Shown: positions 27,055-40,339 of the stretch, piece after piece
How positions within the stretch are numbered: position 1 is the stretch's first letter
Layout of the letters: each line of letters begins with the position of its first letter
NCBI RefSeq assembly: GCF_030486595.1
Contig: NZ_JAUJZH010000009.1
Location: forward strand, 186,001 to 250,000
Length of the DNA stretch: 64,000 nucleotides
DNA from: Variovorax ginsengisoli
GTDB taxonomy: Bacteria; Pseudomonadota; Gammaproteobacteria; Burkholderiales; Burkholderiaceae_C
Direction of reading: 5' to 3'
Notes under the pieces: generated by a model
Database searches by the model: none
Told to the model about the DNA's origin: nothing
The model's input: only the letters and a program-made list of their open reading frames with translations
Made by a program: the position numbers and the translations under genes

Positions 27055-27175
27055 ATGCCCGTGCCGCGACTTGTGCGACGCCTCGACTGTCGGTGGCTGG
27101 CGTTTCCGGCCGATTTCACGCGGCGGGCGGATGTCTTACAGATGCAAGATGCCGGGCACGCACCGATGCCGCGCG

Positions 27176-28189
27176 CTACTCCCTCATGCCTGCGAAGTCG
27201 ACGATGCGCTTGTATTCCACGGCGTCCCTGGCCATCAGCTGGGGCAGGTTCTCGTCGCCGCGGCCGACCACCACTCCGATGCGCTCGAGCTTCTGTCGCA
27301 CCGTTGCGTCCTGCAGCGTCTCGCGCAGCGCGCGCTGCAGCCTGGCCTGCGGATCGGGTGCCAGCCCGCGCGGCGCCATCAGCGCGTACCAGGCCACCAA
27401 GTCGTAGCCCTTGAGGGCCGGATGCTCGCCCAGCGCCGGCACATCCGGCATCAGCGCGATGCGCTGGGCACTGGTCACCGCGATCGGGACGATGCGCCCG
27501 GCATCGATGAAGGGCTTGGCTGCGCCCGGCCCGAGGAATGCGAACTCGATCGCGCCGCCCGCAAGGTCGCTGCCGATGTTGCCGGCGCCGCGGTAGGGGA
27601 CGTGGGTGATCGACAGTCCAGCCTGCTTCTTCACGAGCTCGCCCGAGAAATGCAGCATCGATCCGATGCCCGAGGTTCCGTAGCTCAACTGGCCGGGCTT
27701 CTGGCGGGCGACCGACACGAACTGCGCCAGCGAGGTCACGCCGCTCTGCGTCGATGCGACCAGTACCAGGGGAATGGCGCCGACGTAGCCGACCGGCGTC
27801 AGGTCCCTGGCGGCGTCGTACTTCTGGGCCGGATTGAGGAAACGAGTGGCGACGAATTCGCTGCTCGATCCGAAGATCAGCGTGTGGCCGTCGGGCGCCG
27901 CGTTGACCACCTTCTGCACGCCGATGGCGCCCGCGGCGCCGCCGGCGTTGTCGACGACGACGGTCGCGCCGAGCTTCTTGCCGAGCGTCTCGACAACGGC
28001 GCGGCCGACGGCATCGACGCTGCCGCCGGGTGGATAGCCGATCACGACGGTGATCGGACGGCTGGGCCAGGCCGGCTGCGCCGCCGCCGGCGCGCCCAGG
28101 ATGCAGGCGGTGGCCAGAGCGAGCAGGGCTGTGAGTCGTCGGGCGTTGCGAACGCGAACGCAGGGCGATGAAGACATGGCTGGGTGCAT
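27176..28189 (-). CDS. Bug/TctC-family periplasmic binding protein
   Basis: 337 residues from ATG 28189 (an ATG at 28177 is also possible). Signal peptide RRLTALLALATACILGAPAAA, then RPITVVIGYPPGGSVDAVGR, DGHTLIFGSSSEFV and HVPYRGAGNIGSDLAGGAIEF. It begins 13 bp after the FAD monooxygenase stop and is the final gene of the 12-gene catabolic operon, suggesting it delivers a pathway substrate or related carboxylate. No cognate TctAB permease is in the window. Confidence 0.9.
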   Translation of the reverse strand: MHPAMSSSPCVRVRNARRLTALLALATACILGAPAAAQPAWPSRPITVVIGYPPGGSVDAVGRAVVETLGKKLGATVVVDNAGGAAGAIGVQKVVNAAPDGHTLIFGSSSEFVATRFLNPAQKYDAARDLTPVGYVGAIPLVLVASTQSGVTSLAQFVSVARQKPGQLSYGTSGIGSMLHFSGELVKKQAGLSITHVPYRGAGNIGSDLAGGAIEFAFLGPGAAKPFIDAGRIVPIAVTSAQRIALMPDVPALGEHPALKGYDLVAWYALMAPRGLAPDPQARLQRALRETLQDATVRQKLERIGVVVGRGDENLPQLMARDAVEYKRIVDFAGMRE

Positions 28190-28202
28190 GAAGAAAGCGA
28201 GC

Positions 28203-29438
28203 TCAGTGCGCCACGGGCGGAACGGCGGTTTCGCGCATCACGGCCTCGGTGCTCCGGTAGCGTTCGGCCATCTCGCGCTCGGCCGGCGTGCTGATCTGCG
28301 CCTGCATGTAGGCGCCCAGCGCGCGTGCGTGGTTGACGATGAAGCTGCCGGCGCCGAGACGCGAGGCCTCGTAAGCCTGCAGCGCGGACGGCACATCGGG
28401 CGTTTCGGCGAGCGCACGAACCAGCGCCGCGGCGTCGCTGCCGGCCTTGGTGACGCCCATCCCGCAATGCGGCCGGGCAACGAAGGCCGCGTCGCCCAGC
28501 AGCGCCACCCGGCCGAAGGCCAGCGCCGAGCTTTCCAGATCGAAGATCGGCTGGAAGAACAGGTTCGGCGTCTTCTGCACCACCTCCGCGAACTGCGGCG
28601 CCAGTACCTCTTGCGCCGCCTGGCGTGCGGCCGCCAGCACCTCGGGCCGGATCAGCGGCGGCGGGATGCCGTCGGGCCAGGTCTTGCCGGTCGCATCGGT
28701 CAGCATCTCGCGCAGCGTCGTGTTCTCGTCGGCCGGCCGGTACCAGACGAAGTTGTAGCGCCGCTTGCCCGGCTCCACGCTGTTGCCCTGTCCCGCTACC
28801 GGGTAGGCGATCATCTGTTCCCGCGGCGGCAGGCCGAATGCGAAGTACGGAAAGAGTTCAGCCAGGACGCGCGGCGAGAGGCTCGCTTCCTCGACCAGGC
28901 CGCGCCATGCGAGGTAGCCGGCATAGCGGGGCCGGGTGTCGGGTTGCAGCATCTGGCGCACCGTGGAGCGCAGGCCATCGGCCGCCACCAGCAGGTCGGC
29001 ATGCACCACCTCGCCATCCGCGAAGGTCGCGTGCACGCCTGCCGCATCCTGTTCGAAGGAGACCAGTTGCCGGCCGTTGTGATAGCGCTCCGACGGGAAG
29101 GCGCGGCGCAGCACCTGGTACAGGCGGCCCCAGGCGGTGAGCAGCTGCGGCAGTGGGCGCGAGTCTTCGACCTGGCCATCGCGTGCCAAGGTGATGCGCT
29201 CGCGTACCTCGACGCCGATGCCGTCGGTCACGTCGACGCCCGCGGCGCTCAGCACCTCCATCAGCTCGGGATGCGTCACGACGCCGGCGCCGCGGCCTTC
29301 CAGTTCGTCGGCCACGCGCTCGTGGACATGGACGTCCCAGCCGGCGCGCAGCAGCAGGTTGGCAGCGAACAGGCCGCCCAGGGAGCCGCCGATGACCAGC
29401 GCCTTGCGCGCGGCCTTCACGGTTTGCGGCGCGTTCAT
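28203..29438 (-). CDS. FAD-dependent aromatic monooxygenase (2,6-dihydroxypyridine hydroxylase-like)
   Basis: 411 residues from ATG 29438, overlapping the VOC stop (ATGA). All three flavoprotein hydroxylase motifs are present: KALVIGGSLGGLFAANLLLR (GxGxxG), DLLVAADGLRSTVRQ (DG motif) and VALLGDAAFVARPHCGMGV (GD motif). GRGAGVVTHPELMEVL and the YAGYLAWRGLVEE phrase are typical of the branch containing dihydroxypyridine and related ring hydroxylases. It would hydroxylate an already oxygenated ring using NAD(P)H and O2 in the cytoplasm. Exact substrate unknown. A decayed homologue lies at 26486-27054. Confidence 0.88.
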   Translation of the reverse strand: MNAPQTVKAARKALVIGGSLGGLFAANLLLRAGWDVHVHERVADELEGRGAGVVTHPELMEVLSAAGVDVTDGIGVEVRERITLARDGQVEDSRPLPQLLTAWGRLYQVLRRAFPSERYHNGRQLVSFEQDAAGVHATFADGEVVHADLLVAADGLRSTVRQMLQPDTRPRYAGYLAWRGLVEEASLSPRVLAELFPYFAFGLPPREQMIAYPVAGQGNSVEPGKRRYNFVWYRPADENTTLREMLTDATGKTWPDGIPPPLIRPEVLAAARQAAQEVLAPQFAEVVQKTPNLFFQPIFDLESSALAFGRVALLGDAAFVARPHCGMGVTKAGSDAAALVRALAETPDVPSALQAYEASRLGAGSFIVNHARALGAYMQAQISTPAEREMAERYRSTEAVMRETAVPPVAH

Positions 29439-29887
29439 GCGTGAGCTCCGTGTTCCCGGGCTTCTTCGGCCGGGTAGTTCAGCTCGATGGTGACGCCGGA
29501 CGGGTCTTCGACGAACAGTTGGTGCAGACCGATGCTTGGCACCGTGCGTTCGCGAAAACCCAGGCCGGCCTGCTGGAGCCGTCGGCGCATGTCGGGCAGG
29601 TCGGTCGCCAGGAAGGCGAGGTGGTCGATCGCGGCGCTGCCGTGCAGCGACGCCTCGCTCTTGTCGCCGAGGTACTCGATCAGGCCCTGCGGCGCGTCGG
29701 GATCGATGCCGATGATGTGCACGACGCCGAACTGGGCTTCGTCGTCGCCCTTGTAGAGCCAGAGGCCGGGGAAGTCGAATGGCGGCCGGAAGCCTTCGCG
29801 GAAGCCGAGCACGTCGACATAGAAGTGGCGCGAAGCCTCGAGCCGGGTGGTGCGCACCGAATAGTGGGCAAGGGTCTGGATGGCCAT
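29435..29887 (-). CDS. VOC (glyoxalase/extradiol-dioxygenase fold) protein
   Basis: 150 residues. One betaalphabetabetabeta unit pair: QTLAHYSVRTTRLEASRHFYVDVLGF, then IDHLAFLATDLPDMRRRL and FVEDPSGVTIELNYP. Metal-ligand candidates are His8, His about 90 and the Glu of TIELNY, so it may bind Fe or Mn. A single-module VOC protein could be a small dioxygenase, isomerase or lyase of the pathway. It is translationally coupled to the monooxygenase and lies 51 bp after the molybdenum subunit gene. Confidence 0.88.
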   Translation of the reverse strand: MAIQTLAHYSVRTTRLEASRHFYVDVLGFREGFRPPFDFPGLWLYKGDDEAQFGVVHIIGIDPDAPQGLIEYLGDKSEASLHGSAAIDHLAFLATDLPDMRRRLQQAGLGFRERTVPSIGLHQLFVEDPSGVTIELNYPAEEAREHGAHA

Positions 29888-29938
29888 GAGTGAGTCCTTG
29901 AACAGGGGATTCGAATCGGGGATTGGGAAGGCGGTCGC

Positions 29939-32053
29939 TCAACCGGCGGTGATCAGGTGCGCCAGCCGCTCGGCGGACAGCGGCAACTGCCGGGCGCGCA
30001 GGTCGAGCGCATGCGCGACCGCATTGGCGACCGCCGCGGCGGCCGGGCCCGCGGCGGCCTCGCCGGCGCCCAGGCTGGGCTCGCCCGGCCGTTCGATCAC
30101 GCGCACGGCGATCTCGGGGATCTCGTCGAAGCCCAGGATCGGGTAGTGCTCCCAGTCCCCGGACGTGATGCCGCTGCGGTCCCAGGTCACGCTTTCCTTC
30201 AGTGTCCAGCTGAGCGACTGCAGCAGGCCGCCCTCGATCTGGTTCACCAGGCCATCGGGATTGACCACCACGCCGGCATCGACCACGGCCCAGGCCTTCT
30301 CGACCCGGACCTTCTCCTCGACGCTGACCTGCATGGCGACGGCGCAGTACGCGGCCTGGTTCTTGTAGCGGCCGACGGCGATGCCCAGGCCGCTGCCGCT
30401 GCCGCTTTCGCCGCGCCGGCGCCAGCCGGCCATCTCGGCGGCCGCCTCCAGCACCGCACGCGCACGGGGGTCGCCGAGGTGGCGCAGGCGGAATTCGACC
30501 GGGTCGCAGCCGGCCCACTGCGCCAGCTCGTCCATGAAGCTTTCGATCGCATACAGGTTGGCGTAGGAGCCGAGCGAGCGCAGCGCCGACACGCGCACCG
30601 GCGAGTCGGGGATGAAGTGGTAGTCGACCTGCTGGTGGGGCAGGTCGTACAGCGCGATCGCGTTGCGGTCGCCGCCGCCCATCGGCAGCGGCAGGTCGCG
30701 CGGCGTTGGCCGCGGCAGCGGCGGATCGACCTCCCAGGCGCCGAGCAGGTTGATGCCGTCGCCCCAGCCGGGCCGGTTCATGTGGGTGTGGCTCCACAGG
30801 GACATGGCCCAGCCGCCGATGCGGCCGGCGTCGTCGAGGCCGGCCGTGAGCTGCACCACGCTGGCCGAACCGAACGGTGACATCGACATCTCGTCCTCGC
30901 GCATCCACTGCACGCGCACCGGCTGCCCGATGCGGGTGGCGGCGAAGGCGGCATCGAAGGCGGCATCGTCGGCGCCGTTGTGGCCGTAGCACCCTGCGCC
31001 TGGCGCATGGATGACCTCTACCGTCGCGGCCTCGCGTCCCAGCGCCGCGGCGATCTGGTCGCGCAGCGGATAGACGCCCTGCGTATGGGACCAGACGCGC
31101 AGCTGTCCGCCGCGCGGATCGGCCAGCGCGCAGGCCGGGCCGATGGACGCGTGCGCCAGGTAGGGGCGGGAGTAGGTGGCGCTGTAGGCCTGCAGCCCCG
31201 TGCCGGGCGTGCCGCCCTCGTGCACGCGGCGCGTGCTGGCGGGCAGGCCCTGCAGCAGCGTGACGGTGTCCTGACCCGCATGGGGATCGGGCATGGCATC
31301 GAAGTCGAGCAGCTTGCGGGCCTTGGGCAGTGCGCGCACCAGTGCGCCTTCGTGCGGGCCCACGAGGGCCAGGAAGCGGCCGCTCTGCACCACCTGCGAC
31401 ACACCCGGCAGCGCCCGCAGTTCGGCGAGGGGCACCGCCGCCAGCCGCTGCGAGGGATGCCGCCCGCGCAGCATCCGCACGTGCTGCATGCCGGGAATGA
31501 CCAGGTCCTGCAGATAGCCGGCGCCGGTGAGCTTGGCCCGGAGATCCACGCGCGGCAGCGATCGCCCCACGTAGGGCTCGGGCGCGTGACGGATGCTGGC
31601 GGGGGCCGAGACGATGGCGACGTCGAGATCGATCTCGGCGGCGAGCTCCCAGTAGTCGGTGCCGCGCGTGCCGCCGGCGTCGCTGAAGCAACCGGCATCG
31701 ACTTGCAGGTCCGACGGCGAGACATCCAGCCGGCGCGCGGCCAGCGCAACGAACACCGACCATGCGTGCGCGCAGGCCCAGCGCAGCGCCGCGCCGCCGT
31801 ACTGCACCGAGAGGCTGCCTGCGGTGTAGCCCTCGTCGGGCGAGCGGTCGGTGTGGCCGGCCACCAGCACCAACTGCGCCGGCATCAGGCCGAGGCCATC
31901 GCAGGCGATCTGCACCAGGGCCGTCTCGATCCCCTGGCCCAGTTCGACCTTGCCGGTGAACACGGTGAGCTGGCGCCCGGGTCCGATGCGCAGCCACTGG
32001 CCGAGCCGCGGATGGGCCTGGATGGCGGGCGGCGTGGAGAGCGTGGAACTCAT
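29939..32053 (-). CDS. Molybdopterin-binding hydroxylase large subunit (IorB/NicB-like)
   Basis: 704 residues from ATG 32053, overlapping the small-subunit stop (ATGA). Xanthine-dehydrogenase-family features: RIGPGRQLTVFTGKVELGQG near the start, the ab-type segment YVGRSLPRVDLRAKLTGAGY, and near the C terminus LGAGEAAAGPAAAAVANA carrying the active-site Glu. There is no FAD subunit gene and no cytochrome domain, as in two-subunit enzymes such as isoquinoline 1-oxidoreductase. These enzymes insert water-derived oxygen into N-heteroaromatic rings. Substrate unknown; the electron acceptor is also not evident. Confidence 0.9.
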   Translation of the reverse strand: MSSTLSTPPAIQAHPRLGQWLRIGPGRQLTVFTGKVELGQGIETALVQIACDGLGLMPAQLVLVAGHTDRSPDEGYTAGSLSVQYGGAALRWACAHAWSVFVALAARRLDVSPSDLQVDAGCFSDAGGTRGTDYWELAAEIDLDVAIVSAPASIRHAPEPYVGRSLPRVDLRAKLTGAGYLQDLVIPGMQHVRMLRGRHPSQRLAAVPLAELRALPGVSQVVQSGRFLALVGPHEGALVRALPKARKLLDFDAMPDPHAGQDTVTLLQGLPASTRRVHEGGTPGTGLQAYSATYSRPYLAHASIGPACALADPRGGQLRVWSHTQGVYPLRDQIAAALGREAATVEVIHAPGAGCYGHNGADDAAFDAAFAATRIGQPVRVQWMREDEMSMSPFGSASVVQLTAGLDDAGRIGGWAMSLWSHTHMNRPGWGDGINLLGAWEVDPPLPRPTPRDLPLPMGGGDRNAIALYDLPHQQVDYHFIPDSPVRVSALRSLGSYANLYAIESFMDELAQWAGCDPVEFRLRHLGDPRARAVLEAAAEMAGWRRRGESGSGSGLGIAVGRYKNQAAYCAVAMQVSVEEKVRVEKAWAVVDAGVVVNPDGLVNQIEGGLLQSLSWTLKESVTWDRSGITSGDWEHYPILGFDEIPEIAVRVIERPGEPSLGAGEAAAGPAAAAVANAVAHALDLRARQLPLSAERLAHLITAG

Positions 32054-32532
32054 GGCTGTCCTTCCGCGGGCAACCGGGCCGCGGCGGCCTCGATCGCCTT
32101 CAGGATGCGCGCATGCGCGCCGCAGCGGCACAGGTGCCGGTGCATCGTCTCTTGCAGCTCGGCCTCGGTCGGCGTGGTGGTGCGACGCAGCAGGGCGGTC
32201 ACCGACATCAGGATGCCGTTGATGCAGTAGCCGCACTGCGCGGCCTGCAGCGAGACGAAGGCGTCGAGCACGACCGTGCCGACCGGGTCGCTCGCCAGTT
32301 GCTCGACCGTGGTGAGCTCGCGGCCGGCGGTGCCCCACAGAGGCATGTCGCAGGACTGGACCGCGCGGCCGTCCATCCAGACGGTGCAGGCGCCGCAATG
32401 GCCGGCGCCGCAGCCGAAGCGCACGCCCTTGCAGTCGAGGTCGTTGCGCAGGACATAGAGCAGCAGGTCGTTCTCGTCGGCCTGCACTCGGTGCGCGCGG
32501 CCGTTGACCTTGAGTTCGAAAGTGGAAGTCAT
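32050..32532 (-). CDS. [2Fe-2S] small subunit of molybdenum hydroxylase (IorA/NicA-like)
   Basis: 160 residues from ATG 32532. The plant-type cluster is CKGVRFGCGAGHCGACTVWM with the fourth Cys in AVQSC. The second, helical-domain cluster is AAQCGYCINGIL plus HLCRCGAHARI. Eight cysteines in the right spacing support a functional electron-transfer subunit. It pairs with the 704-residue subunit downstream and is coupled to it by a 4-base overlap. Confidence 0.95.
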   Translation of the reverse strand: MTSTFELKVNGRAHRVQADENDLLLYVLRNDLDCKGVRFGCGAGHCGACTVWMDGRAVQSCDMPLWGTAGRELTTVEQLASDPVGTVVLDAFVSLQAAQCGYCINGILMSVTALLRRTTTPTEAELQETMHRHLCRCGAHARILKAIEAAAARLPAEGQP

Positions 32533-32557
32533 GGGCACTCGAAATGGGGCCGCGCGC

Positions 32558-33703
32558 TCAGGCGTCCGCTGCCATGGCGGGCTTGCGGAGGCCGGCGGCG
32601 CGACGGTACGGCGGGGGGTAGTAAGGCGTGATGCCCAGCGTCTCCGCTGCTCGCCAGACCCAGCGCGGGTCGGCCAGGAAGGGGCGCGCCAGGGCGACCT
32701 GATCGGCCTGGCCCGAGGCCACGATCGCGGCCGCCTGCGCCGGCTCGCTGATGCCGCCGACGGCGCGGGTGGCGATCCCGCTGCGGCGCCGCACTTGCGC
32801 GGCCAGCCCGACCTGGAAGCCGGGGCCGAACGGAATGCGCTCGCCGCGCACCACGAAGCCGCTGCTCACGCAGACGTAGCCGAAGCCGATGTCCTTGAGG
32901 CCCTGGGCCAGGCGCACCGCGTCGTCGACCCCGAGGCCGCCTTCGGCCCAGTCGGTTCCGGTGATGCGGGCACCGAGCACCCGGCTGCCGGGCACCTGCT
33001 CGTGCAGGCGCCGGGCGATGTGCAGCGGCAGCCGGTCGCGCCCGGCCGCGTCGCCGCCCCAGGCGTCGTCGCGCCGGTTCGATAGCGGCGACTGGAACTG
33101 GTGCAGCAGGTAGCCGTGCGCGCAGTGCAGCTCGATGACATCGAAGCCCAGGCGCACGGCGCGCCGCGCGGCGTCGACGTAGGCCTCGACCAGCCCTTCG
33201 ATGCCGGCTTCGTCGAGCGCCTCGGGCGTGTGCCAGTCGGGCGCGAAGGGCAGGGCGCTCGGCGCCGCGCAGCGCCACGGCGCGCCGCCGTCGCCGCCGG
33301 CCTTCAGCGGCCCGCCGCCTTCCCAGGGCACCTGGGCCGAGCCCTTGCGGCCCGCATGGCCGAGCTGGATGCCGAAGCGCGTGCTTGGCGCGGCCACCGC
33401 GCGTGCGGCCTGCAGCACGCGCGACAGCGCGGCCTCCGCGGCGTCGCTGTAGAGGCCCAGGCAGCCGTGCGTGATGCGCCCGCGGGCGTCGACGGCGGTG
33501 GCTTCGACCATGACCAGGCCGGCGCCCGACATCGCGAGCTGCATGAGGTGCTGCAGGTGCCAGTCGTTGGCGACGCCGTCGCGCGCCGAGTACTGGCACA
33601 TGGGCGAGACGACGATGCGGTTGGGGAAGTGCATCCCGCCCATCGCGAGTGCGCTGAACAGGTGGGATTCGGGTGCTGCGGGTGACGTGACGGACATGGT
33701 CAT
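32558..33703 (-). CDS. NADH:flavin oxidoreductase, old yellow enzyme family (YqjM-like)
   Basis: 381 residues. FMN TIM-barrel motifs: FPNRIVVSPMCQYSARDG, VMVEATAVDARGRI, GIQLGHAGRKGSA, ELHCAHGYLLHQFQSPLSN and IATRAVGGISEP. The Cys in SPMCQYS and the HCAH pair mark the thermophilic-like (YqjM) class, which reduces activated C=C bonds with NAD(P)H. In the operon it could reduce a ring or an unsaturated cleavage product. It starts 13 bp after the amidohydrolase stop. Confidence 0.92.
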   Translation of the reverse strand: MTMSVTSPAAPESHLFSALAMGGMHFPNRIVVSPMCQYSARDGVANDWHLQHLMQLAMSGAGLVMVEATAVDARGRITHGCLGLYSDAAEAALSRVLQAARAVAAPSTRFGIQLGHAGRKGSAQVPWEGGGPLKAGGDGGAPWRCAAPSALPFAPDWHTPEALDEAGIEGLVEAYVDAARRAVRLGFDVIELHCAHGYLLHQFQSPLSNRRDDAWGGDAAGRDRLPLHIARRLHEQVPGSRVLGARITGTDWAEGGLGVDDAVRLAQGLKDIGFGYVCVSSGFVVRGERIPFGPGFQVGLAAQVRRRSGIATRAVGGISEPAQAAAIVASGQADQVALARPFLADPRWVWRAAETLGITPYYPPPYRRAAGLRKPAMAADA

Positions 33704-33716
33704 GGCTCCTGGCGGG

Positions 33717-34859
33717 TCAGCGCATCGGCGCGATGTCGAGCAGCTTCAGGGCGTTGAGCCCTTCGATCTGCGCCACCTCGTCGCTCGACAGGCCGCGCAC
33801 CGAGGCGATCAGTTCCCGGGGCCGCTCCTCGCCCATGTCGTAGGGATAGTCGGTGCCGAGCAGCACCCGGTCGGCACCGAAGAGATCGACCAGATGGCGC
33901 AGCATCTCGGGGTCGAACACCATCGTATCGACATAGAAGGTCTTGAGATAGCTCGACGGCGCGCGATCGATCACCGTGCGGCAATCCTTGCGCGCGCGCC
34001 AGGCGTGGTCCATGCGCGCCCAGTAATGCGCCACGTAGCCGCCGCCATGCGCCGCGATGAACCTGATGTTCGGATGGCGCGCCACGACGCCGTCGAAGAT
34101 CAGGTGGCTGACGGCCACGGTCGTGTCCAACGGGTTGCCGATCACGTTGTTGAAGTAGTGGTCGGTCAGCCGGGAACCTTCCGAGAAGCCGACCGGATGC
34201 AGGAAGATCACCGCACCGAGCGCGTCGGCGCGGGCGAAGAAGGGTTCCAGCCCGAGTCTGGCATCGGTCAGGTCGAGCCCGTTGACGTTGGTGTTGATCT
34301 CGATGCCGCGCAGGCCGAGCGTGCCGATCGCGTGGTCGAGCTCCTGGATCGCGAGCTCGGCATTCTGCAGCGGCACCGAGCCGAGGCCGACGAAGCGCCG
34401 CGGCGTGGCCGCCACCAGCGCCGCGATGCCTTCGTTCACCTGGCGGGCCAGGACTGCCCCGCGCTCCGGCGGCGTGAAATAGAAGAACTGGAAAGGCGCC
34501 GGGCTGATCGCCTGGATGTCGATGCCCATGCGGTCCATATCGTCGAGGCGCTGGTCGACGCCGGTCAGCTTCGGCGCACGCTCCCGCATCTGCGCGACGT
34601 TGGTCTCGCGCGTGAGTGCGTTCGCATGGATCACGCTCGGGTCGTGGCGACCGACGTCGAGGTCGCTCGCCGCCTTGGCGACCTCCGGGTTCAGGTAGTG
34701 GCAGTGGACGTCGACGACCGGCGGGCGGTCGCCGCGCACCGGTGCCGACGCGCTGGCCGCGCTCGGCATCGAAAGGGCGGCCGAGCGCGCGCGGCCCGTC
34801 GGCGCTGCGGCGTGGTGGTGGGTCGGGTCGGTGCAGTGGGGGGAGCAGGTGTAGAGCAC
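33717..34859 (-). CDS. Amidohydrolase-family protein (ACMSD-like, PF04909)
   Basis: 380 residues from GTG 34859, preceded by CGGAAC. The first 45 residues are a Cys/His- and Ala/Ser-rich extension not typical of the family. Then VVDVHCHYLNPEV (HxH metal site), VIFLHPVGF, IRFIAAHGGGYVAHY and VLLGTDYPYDMG with the metal-binding Asp. Relatives decarboxylate or hydrolyse ring-cleavage products, for example aminocarboxymuconate semialdehyde decarboxylase. It lies between the importer genes and the flavin reductase in one operon. Confidence 0.9.
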   Translation of the reverse strand: MLYTCSPHCTDPTHHHAAAPTGRARSAALSMPSAASASAPVRGDRPPVVDVHCHYLNPEVAKAASDLDVGRHDPSVIHANALTRETNVAQMRERAPKLTGVDQRLDDMDRMGIDIQAISPAPFQFFYFTPPERGAVLARQVNEGIAALVAATPRRFVGLGSVPLQNAELAIQELDHAIGTLGLRGIEINTNVNGLDLTDARLGLEPFFARADALGAVIFLHPVGFSEGSRLTDHYFNNVIGNPLDTTVAVSHLIFDGVVARHPNIRFIAAHGGGYVAHYWARMDHAWRARKDCRTVIDRAPSSYLKTFYVDTMVFDPEMLRHLVDLFGADRVLLGTDYPYDMGEERPRELIASVRGLSSDEVAQIEGLNALKLLDIAPMR

Positions 34860-34895
34860 GTGAGTTCCGTTCGATGTGTGTTGGAAAAGTCCGGG

Positions 34896-35621
34896 CTAGA
34901 ACACGCCGAGATGGCGGGTCGCGAGTTCGGGTTCGGCGCGCACGGCGTCGGCGCTGCCGGCATGCACGACGTGGCCGGTGTTGAGCACGACCACGTCGTC
35001 CGCCACCTCGAGCGCCAGGTTGAAGTTCTGCTCGACCAGCACGATCGAGAGCCGGTCGGCCTTGAGCATCTTGATGGCCTGCGCCACCTCCGCGACGATC
35101 AGCGGCGCGAGCCCTTCCGACGGCTCGTCGAGCAGCAGCACGCGCGGGTTGCCCATCAGCGCGCGGCCGATCGCGAGCATCTGCTGCTCGCCGCCGGAAA
35201 GGGTGCCGGCACGCTGGCGCATGCGCTCCTTGAGGCGGCCGAAGGTGGCGTAGACGCGCTCGAGGTTCCAGGCGTGCTTGCCGTCGTCATTCGCCCGCGC
35301 CGCCTGTTCGGCCACCTGCAAGTTCTCCAGCACCGTCAGGCTCGGGAAGATGCGCCGGCCCTGGGGCACCAGCCGCATGCCGGCGCGGGCGATGCCTTCG
35401 GGCGACAAGCGTTCCACCGGGCGGCCCGCGAGGCGGATGCTGCCGGCCCGTGCCTGGTGCAGGCCCGCGAAGGTGTTGAGCGAGGTGCTCTTGCCGGCGC
35501 CGTTGCGTCCCAGCAGCGCCAGCACGCGACCCTCTTGCAGGTTCATCGACAGCCGGTGCACGACCTGGCTCTGCCCGTAGCAGACGTCGAGTTCGCTCAC
35601 GCTCAATGCATCAGTGGCCAA
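34896..35621 (-). CDS. ABC transporter ATPase, LivF type
   Basis: 241 residues. Walker A LLGRNGAGKSTSLNTF, Q-loop LVPQGRRIFPSLTVLENL, signature TLSGGEQQMLAIGRALMG and Walker B VLLLDEPSEGLAP are all intact. It overlaps the LivG gene by 11 bases. Together with LivG, LivM, LivH and the binding protein it makes a complete branched-chain amino acid-type importer. Such importers also carry aromatic compounds when they sit in catabolic operons. Confidence 0.94.
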   Translation of the reverse strand: MATDALSVSELDVCYGQSQVVHRLSMNLQEGRVLALLGRNGAGKSTSLNTFAGLHQARAGSIRLAGRPVERLSPEGIARAGMRLVPQGRRIFPSLTVLENLQVAEQAARANDDGKHAWNLERVYATFGRLKERMRQRAGTLSGGEQQMLAIGRALMGNPRVLLLDEPSEGLAPLIVAEVAQAIKMLKADRLSIVLVEQNFNLALEVADDVVVLNTGHVVHAGSADAVRAEPELATRHLGVF

Positions 35622-36351
35622 GGTAGATCTCCCTCGTTCTCGGGTGGTTGACGACGGTGCGCCGGTCGCCTTCGACGATCACCTGCCCATAGTGCAGCAC
35701 CGTGATCTGTTCGGCGAATTCGAGCGCCACGTCCATGTCGTGTTCGATCATCAGGATCGCCGTCTCGCGCGGCACCTGGGCGATCAGCCGCTGCACCACC
35801 ACGCGCTCGTCCTGCGACAGGCCCGCGAGCGGTTCGTCGAGCAGCAGCAGGCGCGGCTGCTGCGCCAGGCCCAATGCCAGCTCGACCCGTCGCTGTTCGC
35901 CATAGGACACGTCGCACACGCGGTGCAGCGCCTTGCCGGCCAACCCGACGCCGTCGAGCAGCTGCACCGCGCGATCGTGCAGCGCCGCGTGCCGCGCCAG
36001 GTCGGTGCGCGCATCGAGCCGCAGCGGCAGCAGCGCCAGCAGCCCCAGCACCACGTTGTGCGCCAGCGTGTCCTTCGGGAACAGCGTGATGATCTGGTAG
36101 GTGCGCGCGAGTCCGCTGCGTGCGCGGGCGCGCACCGGCAGCTTCGTGACGTCTTCACCGAAGATTCGGATCGACCCGCTGTCCGGGCGGATCTCGCCAC
36201 CGATCAGGCCGAACAGCGTGGTCTTGCCGGCGCCGTTCGGTCCGATGACAAGACGCCGCTCGCCGGGCTGCATCGTGAGCGAGACGTCCTGCGTGACGGC
36301 GATGCCGCCGAAGGACTTGCGCAGTCCCTTGATCTCGAGAGCGGCGGTCAT
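35611..36351 (-). CDS. ABC transporter ATPase, LivG type
   Basis: 246 residues from ATG 36351, overlapping the LivM stop (ATGA). Walker A VIGPNGAGKTTLFGLI, the LivG-type LARTYQIITLFPKDTLAHNV, a signature degenerated to VSYGEQRRVELALGLA, Walker B LLLLDEPLAGLS and the His switch MIEHDMDVALEFA. Cytoplasmic subunit of the importer. The YGEQ replacement of SGGEQ is seen in part of this family. Confidence 0.94.
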   Translation of the reverse strand: MTAALEIKGLRKSFGGIAVTQDVSLTMQPGERRLVIGPNGAGKTTLFGLIGGEIRPDSGSIRIFGEDVTKLPVRARARSGLARTYQIITLFPKDTLAHNVVLGLLALLPLRLDARTDLARHAALHDRAVQLLDGVGLAGKALHRVCDVSYGEQRRVELALGLAQQPRLLLLDEPLAGLSQDERVVVQRLIAQVPRETAILMIEHDMDVALEFAEQITVLHYGQVIVEGDRRTVVNHPRTREIYLGH

Positions 36352-37286
36352 GCGCGGCCTCCCTTCCAGCGCGCCACCAAGGTGCGGACGCCCGGCACGA
36401 TGCCGTGCGGCATCACCAGCACGATGAAGACGAACACCGCGCCCAGCAGCATGTTCCATCGTTCGATGTAGCCCGACGCATAGTTCTTCAGCAGCACAAC
36501 CAGCACGGCGCCGACGGCCGGCCCGGCCAGCGTGCCGGCACCGCCCGCGATCACGCTGAGCAGCACCTCGGCCGATGCGGTGACCGACAGCACGCTCGGA
36601 TGCACGTACTTGTGGAAGTAGACGTAGAGCAGGCCCGCCACCGCGCCGACGAAGCTCGCGCCCACGAAGGCACACCAGCGGATCGCCCAGACGTTGTAGC
36701 CGAGCGAGCTCATGCGCCGCGCCTGGTCGCGGGTGCCGCGCAGCGAGGCGCCGAAGGGCGAGTTCACGAGCCGCCCGACGACCAGCAGCACCACCGCCGT
36801 GATCGACAGCACGAACCAGTAGTAGGCGTTGCTGTTCTCCATGTCGATGCCGAAGGGAGCCGGCCGCGTGAGGCCCGACAGGCCGTTGTCGCCGTTGGTG
36901 ACCGAGGTCCAGCGGTAGGCGAGGCCCCACACCACCTGCGACAGCGCGAGGGTCAGCATCAGGAAGCTGAGTCCGGAGGCCCGCAGCGCGATCCAGCCGA
37001 AGACGCCGCCAATGGCCGTGGTGGCCAGCAGCGTGAGCGGCGCCGCCATCGCGTGGCCGAGGCCGAGCCGCAGCGCCAGCCAGGCGGCGATGTAGGCTGA
37101 CAGGCCCAGGTAGGCCGCGTGGCCCAGCGAGGTCAGGCCGGCGTAGCCGACCAGCAGGTTCAGGCTGGAGGCGAAGATCACGGCGATCAGCATCTGGCTG
37201 CCCAGGTTGACGTAGTACTCGCCGGACACCGCCGGCAGCAGGGCCAGGGCCGCGAGCAGCAGCAGGCCACGGATCGTCGGCTTCAT
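36348..37286 (-). CDS. ABC transporter permease, LivM type
   Basis: 312 residues from ATG 37286. About nine transmembrane segments with the LivM loop LNLLVGYAGLTSLGHAAYLG and the ATPase-coupling segment NSPFGASLRGTRDQARRMSSLGYNV (EAA-like loop). Conserved end MLLGAVFVFIVLVMPHGIVPG. It overlaps both neighbours by 4 bases. Confidence 0.93.
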   Translation of the reverse strand: MKPTIRGLLLLAALALLPAVSGEYYVNLGSQMLIAVIFASSLNLLVGYAGLTSLGHAAYLGLSAYIAAWLALRLGLGHAMAAPLTLLATTAIGGVFGWIALRASGLSFLMLTLALSQVVWGLAYRWTSVTNGDNGLSGLTRPAPFGIDMENSNAYYWFVLSITAVVLLVVGRLVNSPFGASLRGTRDQARRMSSLGYNVWAIRWCAFVGASFVGAVAGLLYVYFHKYVHPSVLSVTASAEVLLSVIAGGAGTLAGPAVGAVLVVLLKNYASGYIERWNMLLGAVFVFIVLVMPHGIVPGVRTLVARWKGGRA

Positions 37287-38143
37287 GCGCGGGCACCTCC
37301 GAGCAGGCCGGTGGGCCGGAAGGCCAGCACCAGGATCATCGGCAGGAACAGGATCACGTAGGCGAGGTCGGGGACCAGCGCGGTGCCGAAGGTATAGACG
37401 AAGCCGATGATGAAGCTGGCGATGAAAGTGCCCATCAGGCTGCCGACGCCGCCGAGGATCACCACGATCAGCGCCAGCGGCAGCATGTCGGCGTCCAGCC
37501 CCGGATAGGCCGAGAGCATCGGTCCGCCGAACGCACCGCCGAGTCCGGCCAGCATCGCGCCCAGGCAGAACACGCTGGTGAAGAGGGCCGAGGCCCGGAT
37601 GCCGACCGCACGCGCCATCGGCATGTCGTCGACGCCGGCGCGAATGCGGGCGCCCAGGCGGGTGCGCTCCAGCAGCAGGTACAGCACGACGGCGGCCACC
37701 AGCGCCACCGCGATCACGGCCAGCCGGTAGCTCGGAAAGCTGAAGCCGAACAGCGATGCAGGGCCACTCAGGAAAGCCGGCGGCGAGACCGGGATCGGAT
37801 CGCCGCCCCACAGCACCAGGCAGAGGTCGGCGGCGATGAAGGACAGGCCGAGCGTGGCCAGCACTTGGGCCTGCGCGTTGCCCGACAGCCGGCGCAGCAC
37901 GAGGCGCTCGAACAGCCCGCCGATGAGGGCGGTGGCGAGCCCGGCCAGCACCACGGCGATCGCGAAGCCCCAGCCGGCCCGCGCCGCGCTCGCGGCCACG
38001 TAGGCCCCGATCATGAAGAGGGCGCCGTGCGTGAGGTTGGCGATGCGCATCAGCCCGAAGATGAGCGCGAAGCCCGATGAGAGCAGCAGCAGCAGGCCGC
38101 CGAGGGCCAGGCTGTTGAGTGTCTGAGTCAACCAGAATTGCAT
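37283..38143 (-). CDS. ABC transporter permease, LivH type
   Basis: 286 residues. LTQTLNSLALGGLLLLLSSGFALIFGLMRIANLTHGA is the LivH opening (listed here in part: GFALIFGLMRIANLTHG). About eight transmembrane helices, and the coupling loop ERTRLGARIRAGVDDMPMAR. First permease gene after the binding protein, 63 bp downstream of it. Confidence 0.93.
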   Translation of the reverse strand: MQFWLTQTLNSLALGGLLLLLSSGFALIFGLMRIANLTHGALFMIGAYVAASAARAGWGFAIAVVLAGLATALIGGLFERLVLRRLSGNAQAQVLATLGLSFIAADLCLVLWGGDPIPVSPPAFLSGPASLFGFSFPSYRLAVIAVALVAAVVLYLLLERTRLGARIRAGVDDMPMARAVGIRASALFTSVFCLGAMLAGLGGAFGGPMLSAYPGLDADMLPLALIVVILGGVGSLMGTFIASFIIGFVYTFGTALVPDLAYVILFLPMILVLAFRPTGLLGGARA

Positions 38144-38206
38144 GTTCTTGACGTCAGGGCCCGCCGCGCCGAGGCGGCTGCGGGCCGTGAAGCTCCGGTA
38201 GGGGCG

Positions 38207-39457
38207 TCAGGCGGCCAGGTTCCTGGCGGGCGGCCAGTCGCGCGAATAGACCGGCTCGGCCAGGAACTTCTTCGGGTCGTAGGTCCAGAACTGGCTCACG
38301 TCCGGGTAGGTCTCGATGATGCTGTTGACCAGCCGGCCGTCCTTGCGCTCGACCGTGCGCACGTAGACGTTGCCGACCACGTTGCCCCAGGTGTCGAACT
38401 TGACCGGGCCGCGCGCGGTCAGGGCGTTGGTCTTCTGCAGCGATGCGCGCAGCGACTCGCGATCGAAGGCCTGGCCCTTCAGGGGCTCCAGCGCGGCGTC
38501 GAGCACCGATGCGCTGACATGGGTGCAGGCGGCGTAGAAGCCCGGGTCGTAGCCGTGCGCCTTGCGGAAGGCGCCGGCGAATTTCGCGTTGACGGGGTTC
38601 GCGAGCTCGGCGGAGTACCAGTTCACCGTGACGATGCCCAGCGCCTCGTCGCCCATGTTGCGCAGCACCGCTTCGTCGAGCGCCGTCATGCCGCCGACCA
38701 GGGCCAGCTTGCCGCGCAGGCCGTACTCGTTGAACTGCCGGATGAAGCGAAAGCCGTTGGAGCCCGCGAAGCCGAGGAACACCGCGTCGGCGTCGCGGTT
38801 GAGCTGGGCCAGGAAGCTGCCGTAGTCGGGCGACGTGAGCGGCGGGAACAGCTTCTGCACCACCTTGCCCCCGGCCTCTTCGAAGACGCGCTGGAAGCCG
38901 GCCGTCATCTCGTGGCCGTAGGCGATGTCGTCGGCCACCAGCACCATGCGCTTGTACTTCAGCTTCCTGGCGCAGTAGTCGGCCAGCGGATGGGCGCATT
39001 GGGCCGAGGTCGAGCTGGCGCGGAACAGCCAGGGGTTGGCCTTGCGCTGGGTCATGTCTTCGGCCGCGGCCACCGGAAACACCGGAATCTTGCGGGCCCG
39101 CATGTAGTCGTCGGTGGCCAGCGCCTCGAAGGCGGCCAGCGGGCCCATGAGCACCTGGGCACGTTCGCGCTCGACCAGTTCCTGGGTCTTGCTGCGGGCG
39201 GTCGACGGCACGCCGCCGGTGTCGGCCACGATCAGCTCGACCTTGCGGCCGCCCAGCCGCTGGTCGTTGGCCGCCAGGTAGCTCTGCAGCCCGCGCTCCA
39301 TGTCGAGGCCACCGGAAGCGAAGGGCCCGGTCTTGGCGGTGAGCAAGCCCAGGCGCAGCGGCTCGGTCGTGCCCTGGCCGCGCACCAGCGAAGGGGCCGC
39401 CAGGGCGGCGCCGGCGGTGGCGGCGGCTGCCATGAAACTCCTGCGATCGATCGTCAT
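38207..39457 (-). CDS. Periplasmic binding protein of the Liv-type importer
   Basis: 416 residues. Tat-style signal MTIDRRSFMAAAATAGAALA with likely cleavage near VRGQG. The type I periplasmic-binding fold shows in LRLGLLTAKTGPFASGG, VLMGPLAAFEALATDDYMRA and MVLVADDIAYGHEMTAGF. This is the promoter-proximal gene of the 12-gene catabolic operon; a perfect palindrome lies 36 bp upstream of its start. Ligand unknown, probably the pathway's growth substrate. Confidence 0.92.
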   Translation of the reverse strand: MTIDRRSFMAAAATAGAALAAPSLVRGQGTTEPLRLGLLTAKTGPFASGGLDMERGLQSYLAANDQRLGGRKVELIVADTGGVPSTARSKTQELVERERAQVLMGPLAAFEALATDDYMRARKIPVFPVAAAEDMTQRKANPWLFRASSTSAQCAHPLADYCARKLKYKRMVLVADDIAYGHEMTAGFQRVFEEAGGKVVQKLFPPLTSPDYGSFLAQLNRDADAVFLGFAGSNGFRFIRQFNEYGLRGKLALVGGMTALDEAVLRNMGDEALGIVTVNWYSAELANPVNAKFAGAFRKAHGYDPGFYAACTHVSASVLDAALEPLKGQAFDRESLRASLQKTNALTARGPVKFDTWGNVVGNVYVRTVERKDGRLVNSIIETYPDVSQFWTYDPKKFLAEPVYSRDWPPARNLAA

Positions 39458-39492
39458 GCTGTCTCCGTTCTTCGTGAGGGTTGGATGTTAAG

Positions 39493-39506
39493 TGATCGGA
39501 CGATCA
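39493..39506. promoter_or_regulatory. Perfect palindrome, probable TetR operator
   Basis: TGATCG-GA-CGATCA, 6-base arms around a 2-base spacer, in the divergent region between the importer operon (start 39457) and the tetR-like gene (start 39644). Its size and position suit a TetR dimer site that would repress the catabolic operon. A 10/14 match lies at 39603-39616 and another at 41337-41350. Confidence 0.6.
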
Positions 39507-39602
39507 ATAATAGTTCGAGCAGATTCAGAGATCAAGCGGCGTTCGGCAGAGGGGCATCGGGGTTTACCCGGGCTGACTGGTGTCGAAGGCCCGGCGCGCT
39601 AA

Positions 39603-39643: not shown

Positions 39644-40339
39644 ATGAACCCACGCACCGCCAAGGCTGACGAGACTCCCGAAGAAGGCGCCGCCGGCGGC
39701 AAGCAGCGGCGCCGCCGCCTCGCGCCCGAAGACCGCGAGCACGAGATCGTCCAGTCGGCCATCAGCTTCTTTGCCAGGCATGGCTTTGAGGGCAGTACAC
39801 GCGACCTGGCCCAGCGCCTGGGCGTCTCGCAGCCCCTGCTGTACCGGTATTTCCCGACCAAGGAGGCGCTGGTCGACCGCGTCTACGACGAAGTCTTCGT
39901 GCGCCGCTGGAACCCCGAGTGGGAGGAGTGGCTCGCCGACCGCACGCACTCGCTCGAAAGCCGCCTCAAGCGCTACCTCAAGGACTACGCGCACTTCGTG
40001 CTGCGCGGCGAATGGGTGCGCATCTTCATGTATGCCGGCCTCAGCCGGGCCGGCGTGAACCAGCGCTACCTGGCCCGCCTGCGCGAGCGGCACTTCCTGA
40101 TGATCGCGCGCGAGCTGCGCTTTGCCTACGACATTCCCGATCCCGAGAACGCCGAGGCCGAGGACGAAGAGGTCGAACTCATCTGGGCCATGCACTCCAG
40201 CGTGTTCTACATCGGCGTTCGCAAGTGGGTCTACGACCTCGCGGCGCCACGCAATATTGATCGATTGATCGATATGAGGGTCGAAGCCTTCCTGCACGGG
40301 GCGCCGAAGGTGCTGCTGGCCGACCGCAAATCGACCTGA
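39644..40339 (+). CDS. TetR-family transcriptional regulator
   Basis: 231 residues from ATG 39644. After a charged, disordered-looking head (residues 1-28) the HTH is clear: HEIVQSAISFFARHGFEGST, LAQRLGVSQPLLYRYFPTKEAL. The C-terminal ligand domain is helical and unassigned. Divergent from the 12-gene catabolic operon with the palindrome between them, so it is the leading candidate for its local repressor. A longer upstream open frame is antisense to the binding-protein gene and is not used. Confidence 0.92.
   Translation: MNPRTAKADETPEEGAAGGKQRRRRLAPEDREHEIVQSAISFFARHGFEGSTRDLAQRLGVSQPLLYRYFPTKEALVDRVYDEVFVRRWNPEWEEWLADRTHSLESRLKRYLKDYAHFVLRGEWVRIFMYAGLSRAGVNQRYLARLRERHFLMIARELRFAYDIPDPENAEAEDEEVELIWAMHSSVFYIGVRKWVYDLAAPRNIDRLIDMRVEAFLHGAPKVLLADRKST

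What the first reader, a model, noticed from the sequence alone, without database searches (positions are those of the whole stretch)
27176..39457. Twelve-gene operon for uptake and hydroxylation of an unknown, probably N-heteroaromatic, compound
One minus-strand run with overlaps or gaps of at most 63 bp joins a full Liv-type importer, ACMSD-like amidohydrolase, old yellow enzyme, two-subunit IorAB-type molybdenum hydroxylase, VOC protein, dihydroxypyridine-hydroxylase-like FAD monooxygenase and a Bug receptor. Family knowledge: Mo-hydroxylase plus flavin hydroxylase is the standard opening of pyridine, nicotinate and quinoline degradation. The combination with an OYE and an ACMSD-like amidohydrolase, and the lack of recognised maleamate-pathway genes, does not match a pathway I can name. 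This is my main candidate for an undescribed system.
Basis: partly seen in the sequence, partly recalled or inferred. Interest (0 to 1): 0.72.

Follow-up and report, generated by a model that had tools for sequence, protein, structure and literature searches.

The report
TetR-controlled heteroaromatic-degradation operon of unknown substrate
A soil bacterium carries a real, conserved set of genes that probably imports and breaks down a small nitrogen-containing aromatic acid; related, jointly controlled gene sets occur in other bacteria, and I could not find a named substrate for them.

Summary
The 12-gene minus-strand operon is real (gaps of 63 bp or less, frames open). The 11 genes from livK to the FAD monooxygenase (FMO1) are kept in 4 of 101 same-genus genomes (Variovorax), in one over two contigs; the Bug gene follows directly in two.

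In Bradyrhizobium it also stands before a cytochrome-linked Mo-hydroxylase operon, and in three rhizobial loci before an OYE gene, which supports one pathway there.

Beside FMO1 sits a VOC metalloprotein (26 of 61 loci) or, after one replacement, an AzcA-like cupin (29), never both. The amidohydrolases and Mo-hydroxylases of these clusters do not form single clades.

FMO1's best solved relatives include 2,6-dihydroxypyridine and 6-hydroxynicotinate hydroxylases, so an N-heteroaromatic acid is likely, not shown. Mo-hydroxylase + FMO + OYE has a fungal precedent (hxn nicotinate pathway).

Verdict: ordinary enzyme families in a combination I found described nowhere; a new variant of a known kind.

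The parts
38207..39457 (-). LivK-type periplasmic solute-binding protein (first gene of operon)
   Evidence: Pfam Peripla_BP_6 221 bits; syntenic in L039, L169, L170
37283..38143 (-). LivH permease
   Evidence: Pfam BPD_transp_2 124.9 bits; 93% in V. soli
36348..37286 (-). LivM permease
   Evidence: Pfam BPD_transp_2 120.8 bits; 93% in V. soli
35611..36351 (-). LivG ATPase
   Evidence: Pfam ABC_tran 99.5 bits; 93% in V. soli
34896..35621 (-). LivF ATPase (TTG start)
   Evidence: Pfam ABC_tran 114.4 bits; 90% in V. soli
33717..34859 (-). AmH: Amidohydro_2 protein of the ACMSD-like decarboxylase group; GTG start; carries H52/H54, H221, H271, D337, R104, R282
   Evidence: Pfam 157.6 bits; PDB ACMSD 190 bits; columns counted over 43 relatives
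32558..33703 (-). OYE: YqjM/XenA-like ene-reductase, PMCQY and HCAH motifs present
   Evidence: Pfam 168 bits; best PDB rows NADPH dehydrogenase, chromate reductase; XenA lower; motifs
32050..32532 (-). IorA: two-[2Fe-2S] subunit
   Evidence: Pfam Fer2, Fer2_2; Cys motifs
29939..32053 (-). IorB: Mo-cofactor subunit, IorB-type domain order; no cytochrome c or FAD-subunit gene in the operon
   Evidence: Pfam MoCoBD_1/2; colinear with 8gy3; trees
29435..29887 (-). VOC metalloprotein; H8, H57, H89, E135 invariant in 21 aligned sequences
   Evidence: beside FMO1 in 26 of 61 loci and 6 of 6 extra loci
28203..29438 (-). FMO1: DHPH-like group A FAD monooxygenase
   Evidence: NCBIfam PRK07236 520.8 bits, cut-off 333; PDB DHPH 184.5 bits
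27176..28189 (-). Bug/TctC solute-binding protein (last gene; follows FMO directly only here and in V. soli)
   Evidence: Pfam TctC 175.9 bits
39644..40339 (+). TetR-family regulator, divergent from the operon; relatives (E<1e-25) in 53 of 67 loci examined, the window included
   Evidence: Pfam TetR_N
39490..39509 (.). Palindromic operator-like site (14-bp core TGATCGGACGATCA at 39493-39506) between TetR and LivK
   Evidence: one of two places in the 7.8-Mb genome that match TKATCRNNYGATMA
40255..40274 (.). Second operator-like site, inside the 3' end of the tetR gene; a similar site lies there in V. soli
   Evidence: matrix score 27.3 here, 22.0 in L172
41334..41353 (.). Weak operator-like site between LysR and MFS; sites in the same place in L172, L169 and L170
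   Evidence: score 15.9; relatives 12.5, 20.8, 20.1
40343..41236 (-). LysR regulator
   Evidence: Pfam; 89% in L172, 82% in L170, 78% in L053
41432..42772 (+). MFS permease, likeness to HpaX (254 bits, below its cut-off 615); start inferred from conservation
   Evidence: Pfam MFS_1, NCBIfam; 80-91% in L172, L053, L169, L121, L170
26629..27129 (-). Decayed remnant of a second DHPH-like monooxygenase (FMO2)
   Evidence: 57% over 172 aa to the Polaromonas jejuensis FMO2; one stop inside the match

Best explanation
It is a TetR-controlled catabolic operon for a small N-heteroaromatic carboxylic acid (pyridine- or quinoline-like). Shown by sequence: gene content, conserved synteny, a conserved regulator with an operator-like motif, active-site motifs present. 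Inferred: the Liv importer (with Bug and an MFS permease) brings the acid in; IorAB hydroxylates the ring carbon beside N to give a lactam; FMO1 hydroxylates the oxo-ring to an electron-rich di- or trihydroxy compound; the VOC metalloprotein acts on the FMO1 product, perhaps opening the ring (a cupin sits in its place in most of the alphaproteobacterial loci seen); AmH, a Zn-type decarboxylase, removes a carboxylate before FMO1 or after ring opening; OYE reduces a C=C of the oxo-ring or of the opened chain. TetR presumably represses until substrate or an intermediate binds it. My rough odds: catabolic operon for an aromatic acid 0.85; N-heteroaromatic 0.65; VOC as ring-opening enzyme 0.4; AmH as decarboxylase 0.65.
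For: Twelve tight frames. FMO1's best PDB relative is 2,6-dihydroxypyridine hydroxylase; 3rp8 and 6-hydroxynicotinate 3-monooxygenase follow. IorB has IorB-type order. AmH carries ACMSD-type ligands and two Arg; in 43 aligned relatives H221, H271, R282, D337 stand in 43, H52 and H54 in 32 (11 gaps), R104 in 33 (Lys in 10). VOC keeps four ligand-type residues in 21 sequences. Slot beside FMO1: VOC 26, cupin 29, both 0, neither 6 of 61; VOC in 6 of 6 further loci with FMO1 of 48-52%. Near FMO1: OYE 28, IorB 22, AmH 17 (one only 27% identical) of 61, against 0, 0 and 1 of 26 control loci. Operator sites of 20 bits or more in 49 of 61 loci, 121 in 1,184,125 bases against 1 in 464,475 bases of controls; before cytc-IorAB in 10 Bradyrhizobium loci, before OYE in L066, L067, L095, before FMO2 in L065, L078, L080, and before VOC, FMO1, LivK and TetR. 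In another genus of the family (G097, L192) VOC-FMO1, Liv genes 63-73% identical to the window's, IorAB and an AmH-like gene lie within 19.9 kb. Fungal precedent for Mo-hydroxylase + FMO + OYE on pyridines.
Against: No substrate, expression or enzyme data. The top solved relative of IorB is an aldehyde dehydrogenase, more clearly so for the cytochrome-linked IorB of a related cluster (177.5 bits). FMO1 and FMO2 score equally against DHPH (184.5 and 183.8 bits), so neither is a specific DHPH orthologue. 24 of 61 FMO1 loci show none of OYE, IorB and AmH (some contigs are short). The operator is missing (score under 20) in 12 of 61 loci and in 5 of 6 further loci, of which 3 lack a TetR match. 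The link of operator and IorAB was seen in Bradyrhizobium only, that of operator and OYE in three close rhizobia. Window IorB and AmH do not group with those of most other FMO1 clusters, so pathways may differ.
Confidence: 0.55

Rival explanations
1. The operon degrades a carbocyclic aromatic acid or aldehyde (benzenoid): IorAB is an aldehyde oxidoreductase, FMO1 a phenol-type hydroxylase, VOC an extradiol dioxygenase, AmH an ACMSD- or LigW-like decarboxylase of the ring-cleavage product, followed elsewhere by a muconic-semialdehyde dehydrogenase.
For: IorB best PDB hit is an aldehyde dehydrogenase large subunit. AmH is closest to ACMSD, which acts on a ring-cleavage product (role recalled). 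In 10 of 61 loci an aldehyde dehydrogenase at least 70% identical to the query (its own locus counted) stands near; the best PDB row of one of them is a putative gamma-hydroxymuconic semialdehyde dehydrogenase, with betaine aldehyde and other dehydrogenases close behind. VOC fold hits include extradiol dioxygenases. Salicylate hydroxylase is among the lower PDB hits of FMO1.
Against: The top five PDB rows of FMO1 are enzymes of N-heterocycles, if 3rp8 and 3rp6 are urate hydroxylases as recalled. VOC has one domain of 150 aa and a shorter spacing than the extradiol signature (recalled pattern).
Confidence: 0.22
2. An electrophile/aldehyde detoxification operon: OYE reduces enones, VOC acts as glyoxalase, IorAB oxidises aldehydes, FMO and amidohydrolase process the products.
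For: OYE, VOC and Mo aldehyde oxidoreductase families occur in such operons (recalled: nemRA-gloA of E. coli); some loci also carry PoxB or a thioredoxin-reductase-like gene.
Against: A full Liv importer, a Bug receptor and a decarboxylase-type AmH in the same run of genes; transporters stand near FMO1 in many loci (Liv 22, ActP 36 of 61).
Confidence: 0.1
3. A purine- or triazine-like heterocycle is the substrate: IorAB works as a xanthine-dehydrogenase-like hydroxylase, FMO1 as a urate-hydroxylase-like enzyme, and VOC or cupin processes the unstable product, as AzcA is said to form a triazine.
For: The cupin found in place of VOC is most like AzcA (56 bits; Foldseek E 3.4e-10); FMO1 matches the urate hydroxylase HpxO model at 118 bits.
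Against: The HpxO cut-off is 500 bits, so FMO1 is no HpxO; AzcA likeness is remote and concerns the cupin loci only; no allantoin- or hydantoin-type hydrolase was recognised in the operon; ACMSD-like AmH does not fit purines (inference).
Confidence: 0.08

Closest known systems
hxn nicotinate pathway of Aspergillus nidulans (PMC9304392, passages read)
   Same: Mo-hydroxylase (HxnS) + FAD monooxygenases (HxnX, HxnV) + old yellow enzyme (HxnT) proposed to reduce the trihydroxypyridine ring
   Different: Fungal; the polyol-dehydrogenase-type HxnW and the cyclic imidase HxnM have no counterpart among the 12 genes; no ACMSD-like or VOC protein in the passages read; HxnV is a phenol-hydroxylase-type FMO
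pic picolinate cluster of Alcaligenes/Bordetella (PMC10142695, passages read)
   Same: Pyridine acid pathway with dehydrogenase PicA, monooxygenase PicB and an amidohydrolase-family decarboxylase PicC
   Different: No picDEFG-like lower-pathway genes in this operon; PicB is multi-component (picB1-B4); no OYE or VOC in the passages read
2,6-dihydroxypyridine hydroxylase (DHPH, PDB 2vou)
   Same: Closest solved relative of FMO1 (184.5 bits); an RPH...K stretch shared in the alignment
   Different: The FMO2 paralogue scores the same (183.8), so no orthology shown
kpi 4-hydroxypyridine cluster of Arthrobacter IN13 (PMC7356986, passages read)
   Same: FAD monooxygenase plus an amidohydrolase-family protein in pyridine catabolism
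   Different: KpiC is described as a ring-opening dioxygenase, compared within Pfam01979; KpiA lies nearest 2-heptyl-3-hydroxy-4(1H)-quinolone synthase; no Mo-hydroxylase or OYE in the passages read
AzcA cupin (PDB 9u8n; title only seen)
   Same: Closest solved relative of the cupin found in place of VOC
   Different: Its title says it forms a triazine; 100 aa; remote; not in the window

Membership tests
PRK07236 / PF22607 DHPH-like FMO | Curated model score above cut-off | tested here: met
   520.8 bits, cut-off 333; PF22607 100.6, cut-off 27
2,6-dihydroxypyridine 3-hydroxylase (DHPH proper) | Orthology to DHPH rather than to its paralogues | tested here: inconclusive
   FMO1 184.5 and FMO2 183.8 bits against 2vou
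2,6-dihydroxypyridine 3-hydroxylase (DHPH proper) | Activity on 2,6-dihydroxypyridine | not testable with these tools
   needs enzyme assay
IorAB-type Mo-hydroxylase | Two subunits, separate 2x[2Fe-2S] protein, no FAD subunit, IorB-type domain order | tested here: met
   residues 7-409 colinear with 48-468 of 8gy3, while 26-142 matches 499-615 of 7dqx
N-heterocycle-specific Mo-hydroxylase (against aldehyde oxidoreductase) | Phylogeny or residues that separate N-heterocycle from aldehyde enzymes | tested here: inconclusive
   8gy3 95.4, 7dqx 83.6, 1t3q 83.3 bits; named IorB and NicB sequences were not at hand for the trees
ACMSD-like decarboxylase | HxH, His, His, Asp metal ligands and two substrate Arg (roles recalled) | tested here: met
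   H52/H54, H221, H271, D337, R104, R282 present
ACMSD proper | 2-amino-3-carboxymuconate semialdehyde as substrate | not testable with these tools
   needs assay
Maleamate (nic/pic) pathway | 2,5-dihydroxypyridine dioxygenase, deformylase, maleamate amidase and maleate isomerase with the upper genes | tested here: not met
   none recognised among the 12 genes; best of 4 PF17645 hits of the genome is an arylmalonate decarboxylase, the other 3 (68-115 bits) were not examined; dioxygenase, deformylase and amidase were not sought genome-wide
hxn pathway | Mo-hydroxylase + FMO + OYE together | tested here: met
hxn pathway | Polyol-dehydrogenase-type enzyme and cyclic imidase (HxnW, HxnM) | tested here: not met
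   none recognised among the 12 genes
Type I extradiol dioxygenase (VOC) | Two-domain protein with the PS00082-like signature (recalled) | tested here: not met
   150 aa; compared by eye, spacing and the Tyr differ

The most novel reading that the evidence does not exclude
A widespread, undescribed proteobacterial regulon for N-heteroaromatic acids: a DHPH-like monooxygenase with a dedicated small metalloenzyme forms the core, in many species with TetR and a shared palindromic operator. The metalloenzyme is a VOC protein or, after one replacement, an AzcA-like cupin, and opens the hydroxylated ring by chemistry not yet assigned to either family. Mo-hydroxylases, ACMSD-like decarboxylases and ene-reductases were plugged in or exchanged several times, giving a bacterial counterpart of the fungal hxn reductive pyridine route.
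Probability: 0.3. Interest if true: 0.7.

Novelty: new variant of a known kind. Interest (0 to 1): 0.5.

Why it matters
If true, it gives a catabolic role to an FMO subfamily that NCBIfam still calls 'hypothetical protein' (PRK07236), to a VOC and a cupin protein family for which my searches gave no function, and to a TetR regulator with a predictable operator. The operator motif makes the regulon and its substrate directly testable in tractable soil bacteria, and would show two unrelated metalloenzyme folds filling one pathway slot.

Tried and rejected
Led nowhere or rejected: (a) Naming the substrate from papers: nine searches listed no cluster with this gene set that I recognised; I saw listings, and passages of three papers; the library is open-licence PMC only. 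(b) The best maleate-isomerase-family gene of the genome is an arylmalonate decarboxylase; no hidden nic pathway was found, but its other genes were not sought. (c) The second IorB-type gene at G000:C85:145648 has no FMO1, AmH, OYE or VOC match within the 19.9 kb held (L168). (d) VOC/cupin exclusion as repeated convergence: rejected; the quick FMO1 tree puts the cupin loci on one side of one branch (SH-aLRT 99), so it is one replacement. (e) One clade of AmH or of IorB for all FMO1 clusters: not found. AmH labels need 4 changes, starred branches force 3, but in each run one true FMO1 row stood unlabelled (L176; L186, a copy of L194), so about 3 and 2. IorB: 5 forced, 6 after relabelling. Such changes may be separate gains or one gain with losses. 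(f) IorAB neighbourhoods on plasmids of Azospirillum, Shinella, Skermanella and Rhizobium Q54 showed no Liv or AmH partners; the Azospirillum one has a DHPH-like FMO next to it (42%). (g) The VOC model is of moderate quality (mean pLDDT 79) and its fold hits do not choose between epimerase and dioxygenase. (h) An earlier idea that L018 shows IorAB with AmH without FMO1 was wrong: the longer stretch of the same genome (L192) holds VOC-FMO1.

Weak points of my controls: the 26 control loci are the distant hits of the same scan (10 hold a distant FMO), largely other taxa, not a matched sample. The 61 FMO1 loci (53 of the 79, plus 8 plasmid loci) contain near-duplicates (for example L066 and L067) and short contigs. 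The operator matrix was trained on 29 sites picked as best matches to the window palindrome in 39 promoter regions. Ten regions were dropped: L067, L095, L070 as near-copies; L125, L045, L122, L119, L071 for poor or unlike matches; L170 and L081 without a stated rule. 26 training sites lie in the 61 loci, so 95 of the 121 sites are outside the training set (arithmetic). Gene labels come from a greedy ORF picker that misses or mislabels some genes. L048 was left out of the residue count and of the tree.

Full report
What is there. The window is G000:C85:186001-250000 of a 7.8-Mb genome; genomes of the same genus include Variovorax soli (G334; L137 and L172 are identical to L039 where they overlap) and a strain 99.985% identical to Variovorax PDNC026 over 19,901 bp (G345). 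Pfam, NCBIfam and PDB searches support the family names. Expected motifs are present: OYE PMCQY and HCAH; IorA cysteine motifs; FMO GGSLGG and GDAA...RPH; IorB GAGE; AmH H52/H54, H221, H271, D337, R104, R282 (roles recalled).

Conservation. FMO1 (E <= 1e-100) is present in 8 of 101 genomes of the genus, an AmH of 85% or more in 4 of 101, the own genome included. These four carry LivK-LivHMGF-AmH-OYE-IorA-IorB-VOC-FMO in order; in the MAG (G349) the run is split over two contigs inside IorB and LivF matches in two pieces in different frames. The Bug gene follows directly only here and in V. soli (87%); in PDNC026 an aldehyde dehydrogenase-like gene (36%) and a different Bug gene (35%) follow. 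So the conserved unit has eleven genes.

Regulation. A TetR gene lies divergently at 39644-40339. Relatives (E < 1e-25) occur in 53 of 67 loci, the window among them. Between TetR and LivK stands the palindrome TGATCGGACGATCA (39493-39506). A matrix from 29 such sites (39 promoter regions scanned) has the symmetrised consensus TATTTATCGATCGATAAATA. Sites scoring 20 or more occur in 49 of 61 FMO1 loci: 121 sites in 1,184,125 bases, against 1 in 464,475 bases of 26 control loci. They stand before tetR, VOC, FMO1 and livK, before cytochrome c-IorAB in 10 Bradyrhizobium loci, before FMO2 in three, and before OYE in three rhizobial loci (L066, L067, L095). This ties Mo-hydroxylase, OYE and FMO1 to one regulon in those bacteria. 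It is not universal: 12 of 61 loci lack a site, and so do 5 of 6 further FMO1 loci, 3 of which have no TetR match. In this genome the strict pattern has two places, one of them here. Two further sites lie in the window, one inside the tetR 3' end, one weak between LysR (40343-41236) and an MFS permease (41432-42772). The LysR-MFS pair is present in V. soli and the MAG (L172, L170) and beside the VOC-FMO cluster of L053; PDNC026 keeps the MFS but gave no LysR match.

The FMO1 partner slot. FMO1 was used for the one genome-contig scan (79 loci; 53 with at least 50% identity kept, plus 8 plasmid loci, making 61; the other 26 served as controls). VOC lies near FMO1 in 26, a cupin in 29, both in 0, neither in 6 of 61 (several contigs are short). 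In six further loci of the family with FMO1 at 48-52% identity VOC is beside it in 6 of 6. The quick FMO1 tree puts the cupin loci on one side of one branch (SH-aLRT 99) with VOC on the others, so this is one replacement, probably of VOC by cupin. The cupin's nearest solved relative is AzcA (Foldseek E 3.4e-10, profile 56 bits), entitled as forming a triazine; two searches found no paper on it. The VOC has H8, H57, H89 and E135 invariant in 21 sequences; its model (pLDDT 79) resembles methylmalonyl-CoA epimerases and extradiol dioxygenases about equally.

Associated enzymes. Near FMO1: OYE 28, IorB 22, AmH 17 (one at 27%), a second FMO 16 of 61; controls OYE 0, IorB 0, AmH 1 of 26. 37 of 61 loci have at least one of OYE, IorB, AmH; 24 have none. 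In another genus (G097, L192) one 19.9-kb stretch holds VOC-FMO1, Liv genes 63-73% identical to the window's, IorAB (41-44%) and an AmH-like gene (39%); in G115 (L194) VOC-FMO1 lies by an AmH of 61%. AmH of FMO1 clusters falls into four deep groups: Variovorax with Azohydromonas and G115; Alphaproteobacteria; Burkholderia/Paraburkholderia; and L089 with L192. The window's IorB with its Variovorax orthologues is apart from the cytochrome-linked IorB of most other clusters. The OYE also differs: YqjM-like here, closest to N-ethylmaleimide reductase in Paraburkholderia. So parts were probably exchanged or recruited more than once; single gains with losses are not excluded. IorAB beside an AmH-like gene (50%) also occurs with CoA-transferase and acyl-CoA dehydrogenase genes in a genome without FMO1 at E <= 1e-100 (G326, L166).

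A relic. Just 3' of the operon lies a decayed second FMO (26629-27129), 57% identical over 172 aa to the FMO2 of the Polaromonas jejuensis cluster. FMO2 genes accompany FMO1 in other clusters, so this locus has probably lost one; none was found 3' of Bug in V. soli.

Substrate. FMO1's best solved relative is 2,6-dihydroxypyridine hydroxylase (184.5 bits), followed by flavoprotein monooxygenase 3rp8 (urate hydroxylase by recall) and 6-hydroxynicotinate 3-monooxygenase, then salicylate hydroxylase and tropone monooxygenase with less. This favours an oxo- or hydroxy-N-heteroaromatic. Liv, Bug and an MFS with likeness to the 4-hydroxyphenylacetate permease (254 bits, below cut-off) fit an aromatic acid. 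The Mo subunit does not decide: 8gy3 aldehyde dehydrogenase 95 bits, 6-hydroxypseudooxynicotine and quinoline enzymes 83 bits each; a cytochrome-linked relative leans to aldehyde dehydrogenase (177.5 bits). I therefore hold N-heteroaromatic at about 0.65.

Mechanism. Most likely: import; IorAB hydroxylation beside N; FMO1 hydroxylation; VOC action on the product, perhaps ring opening; AmH decarboxylation; OYE reduction. Order and products are inferred. The hxn pathway of Aspergillus nidulans, in which the OYE HxnT is proposed to reduce 2,3,6-trihydroxypyridine formed by FMOs after a Mo-hydroxylase (PMC9304392, passages), shows that an OYE fits pyridine chemistry. PicC (PMC10142695, passages) shows an amidohydrolase-family decarboxylase in a pyridine pathway.

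Known or new. The enzyme families are known. The combination, the TetR regulon with its operator, and the VOC/cupin slot were not met in nine searches of an open-licence library, which misses most subscription journals. I rate it a new variant of a known kind, interest 0.5.

Noticed in passing
window 26629-27129 (-): Decayed second DHPH-like FAD monooxygenase gene immediately 3' of the operon; homologues accompany FMO1 in other bacteria.
   Followed up: partly
G000:C85:145648-147654 (L168): Second IorB-type Mo-hydroxylase gene (39% identical) about 70 kb from the operon on the same contig, with an IorA and without FMO1 partners in the 19.9 kb held.
   Followed up: partly
for example L118, L119, L120, L125, L053: Some FMO1 clusters lie beside thioredoxin-reductase-like FAD proteins, a UBP-type zinc finger, response regulators, a winged-helix protein or a very large AAA ATPase: an unexplained recurring neighbourhood.
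   Followed up: no
L166 (G326): IorAB next to an ACMSD-like amidohydrolase, CoA-transferases and an acyl-CoA dehydrogenase in a Variovorax genome without FMO1, suggesting a CoA-dependent route.
   Followed up: partly
L119:13351-14490: By eye, the Paraburkholderia amidohydrolase has a twin-arginine-like N-terminus, so it may be periplasmic.
   Followed up: no
G000:C32:220055-220741 (L181): Arylmalonate decarboxylase (372 bits, cut-off 225) with a Bug receptor and an enolase-superfamily gene beside it.
   Followed up: partly
G000:C65:290905-290918 (L173): The only other strict match to the TetR operator pattern in the genome.
   Followed up: no
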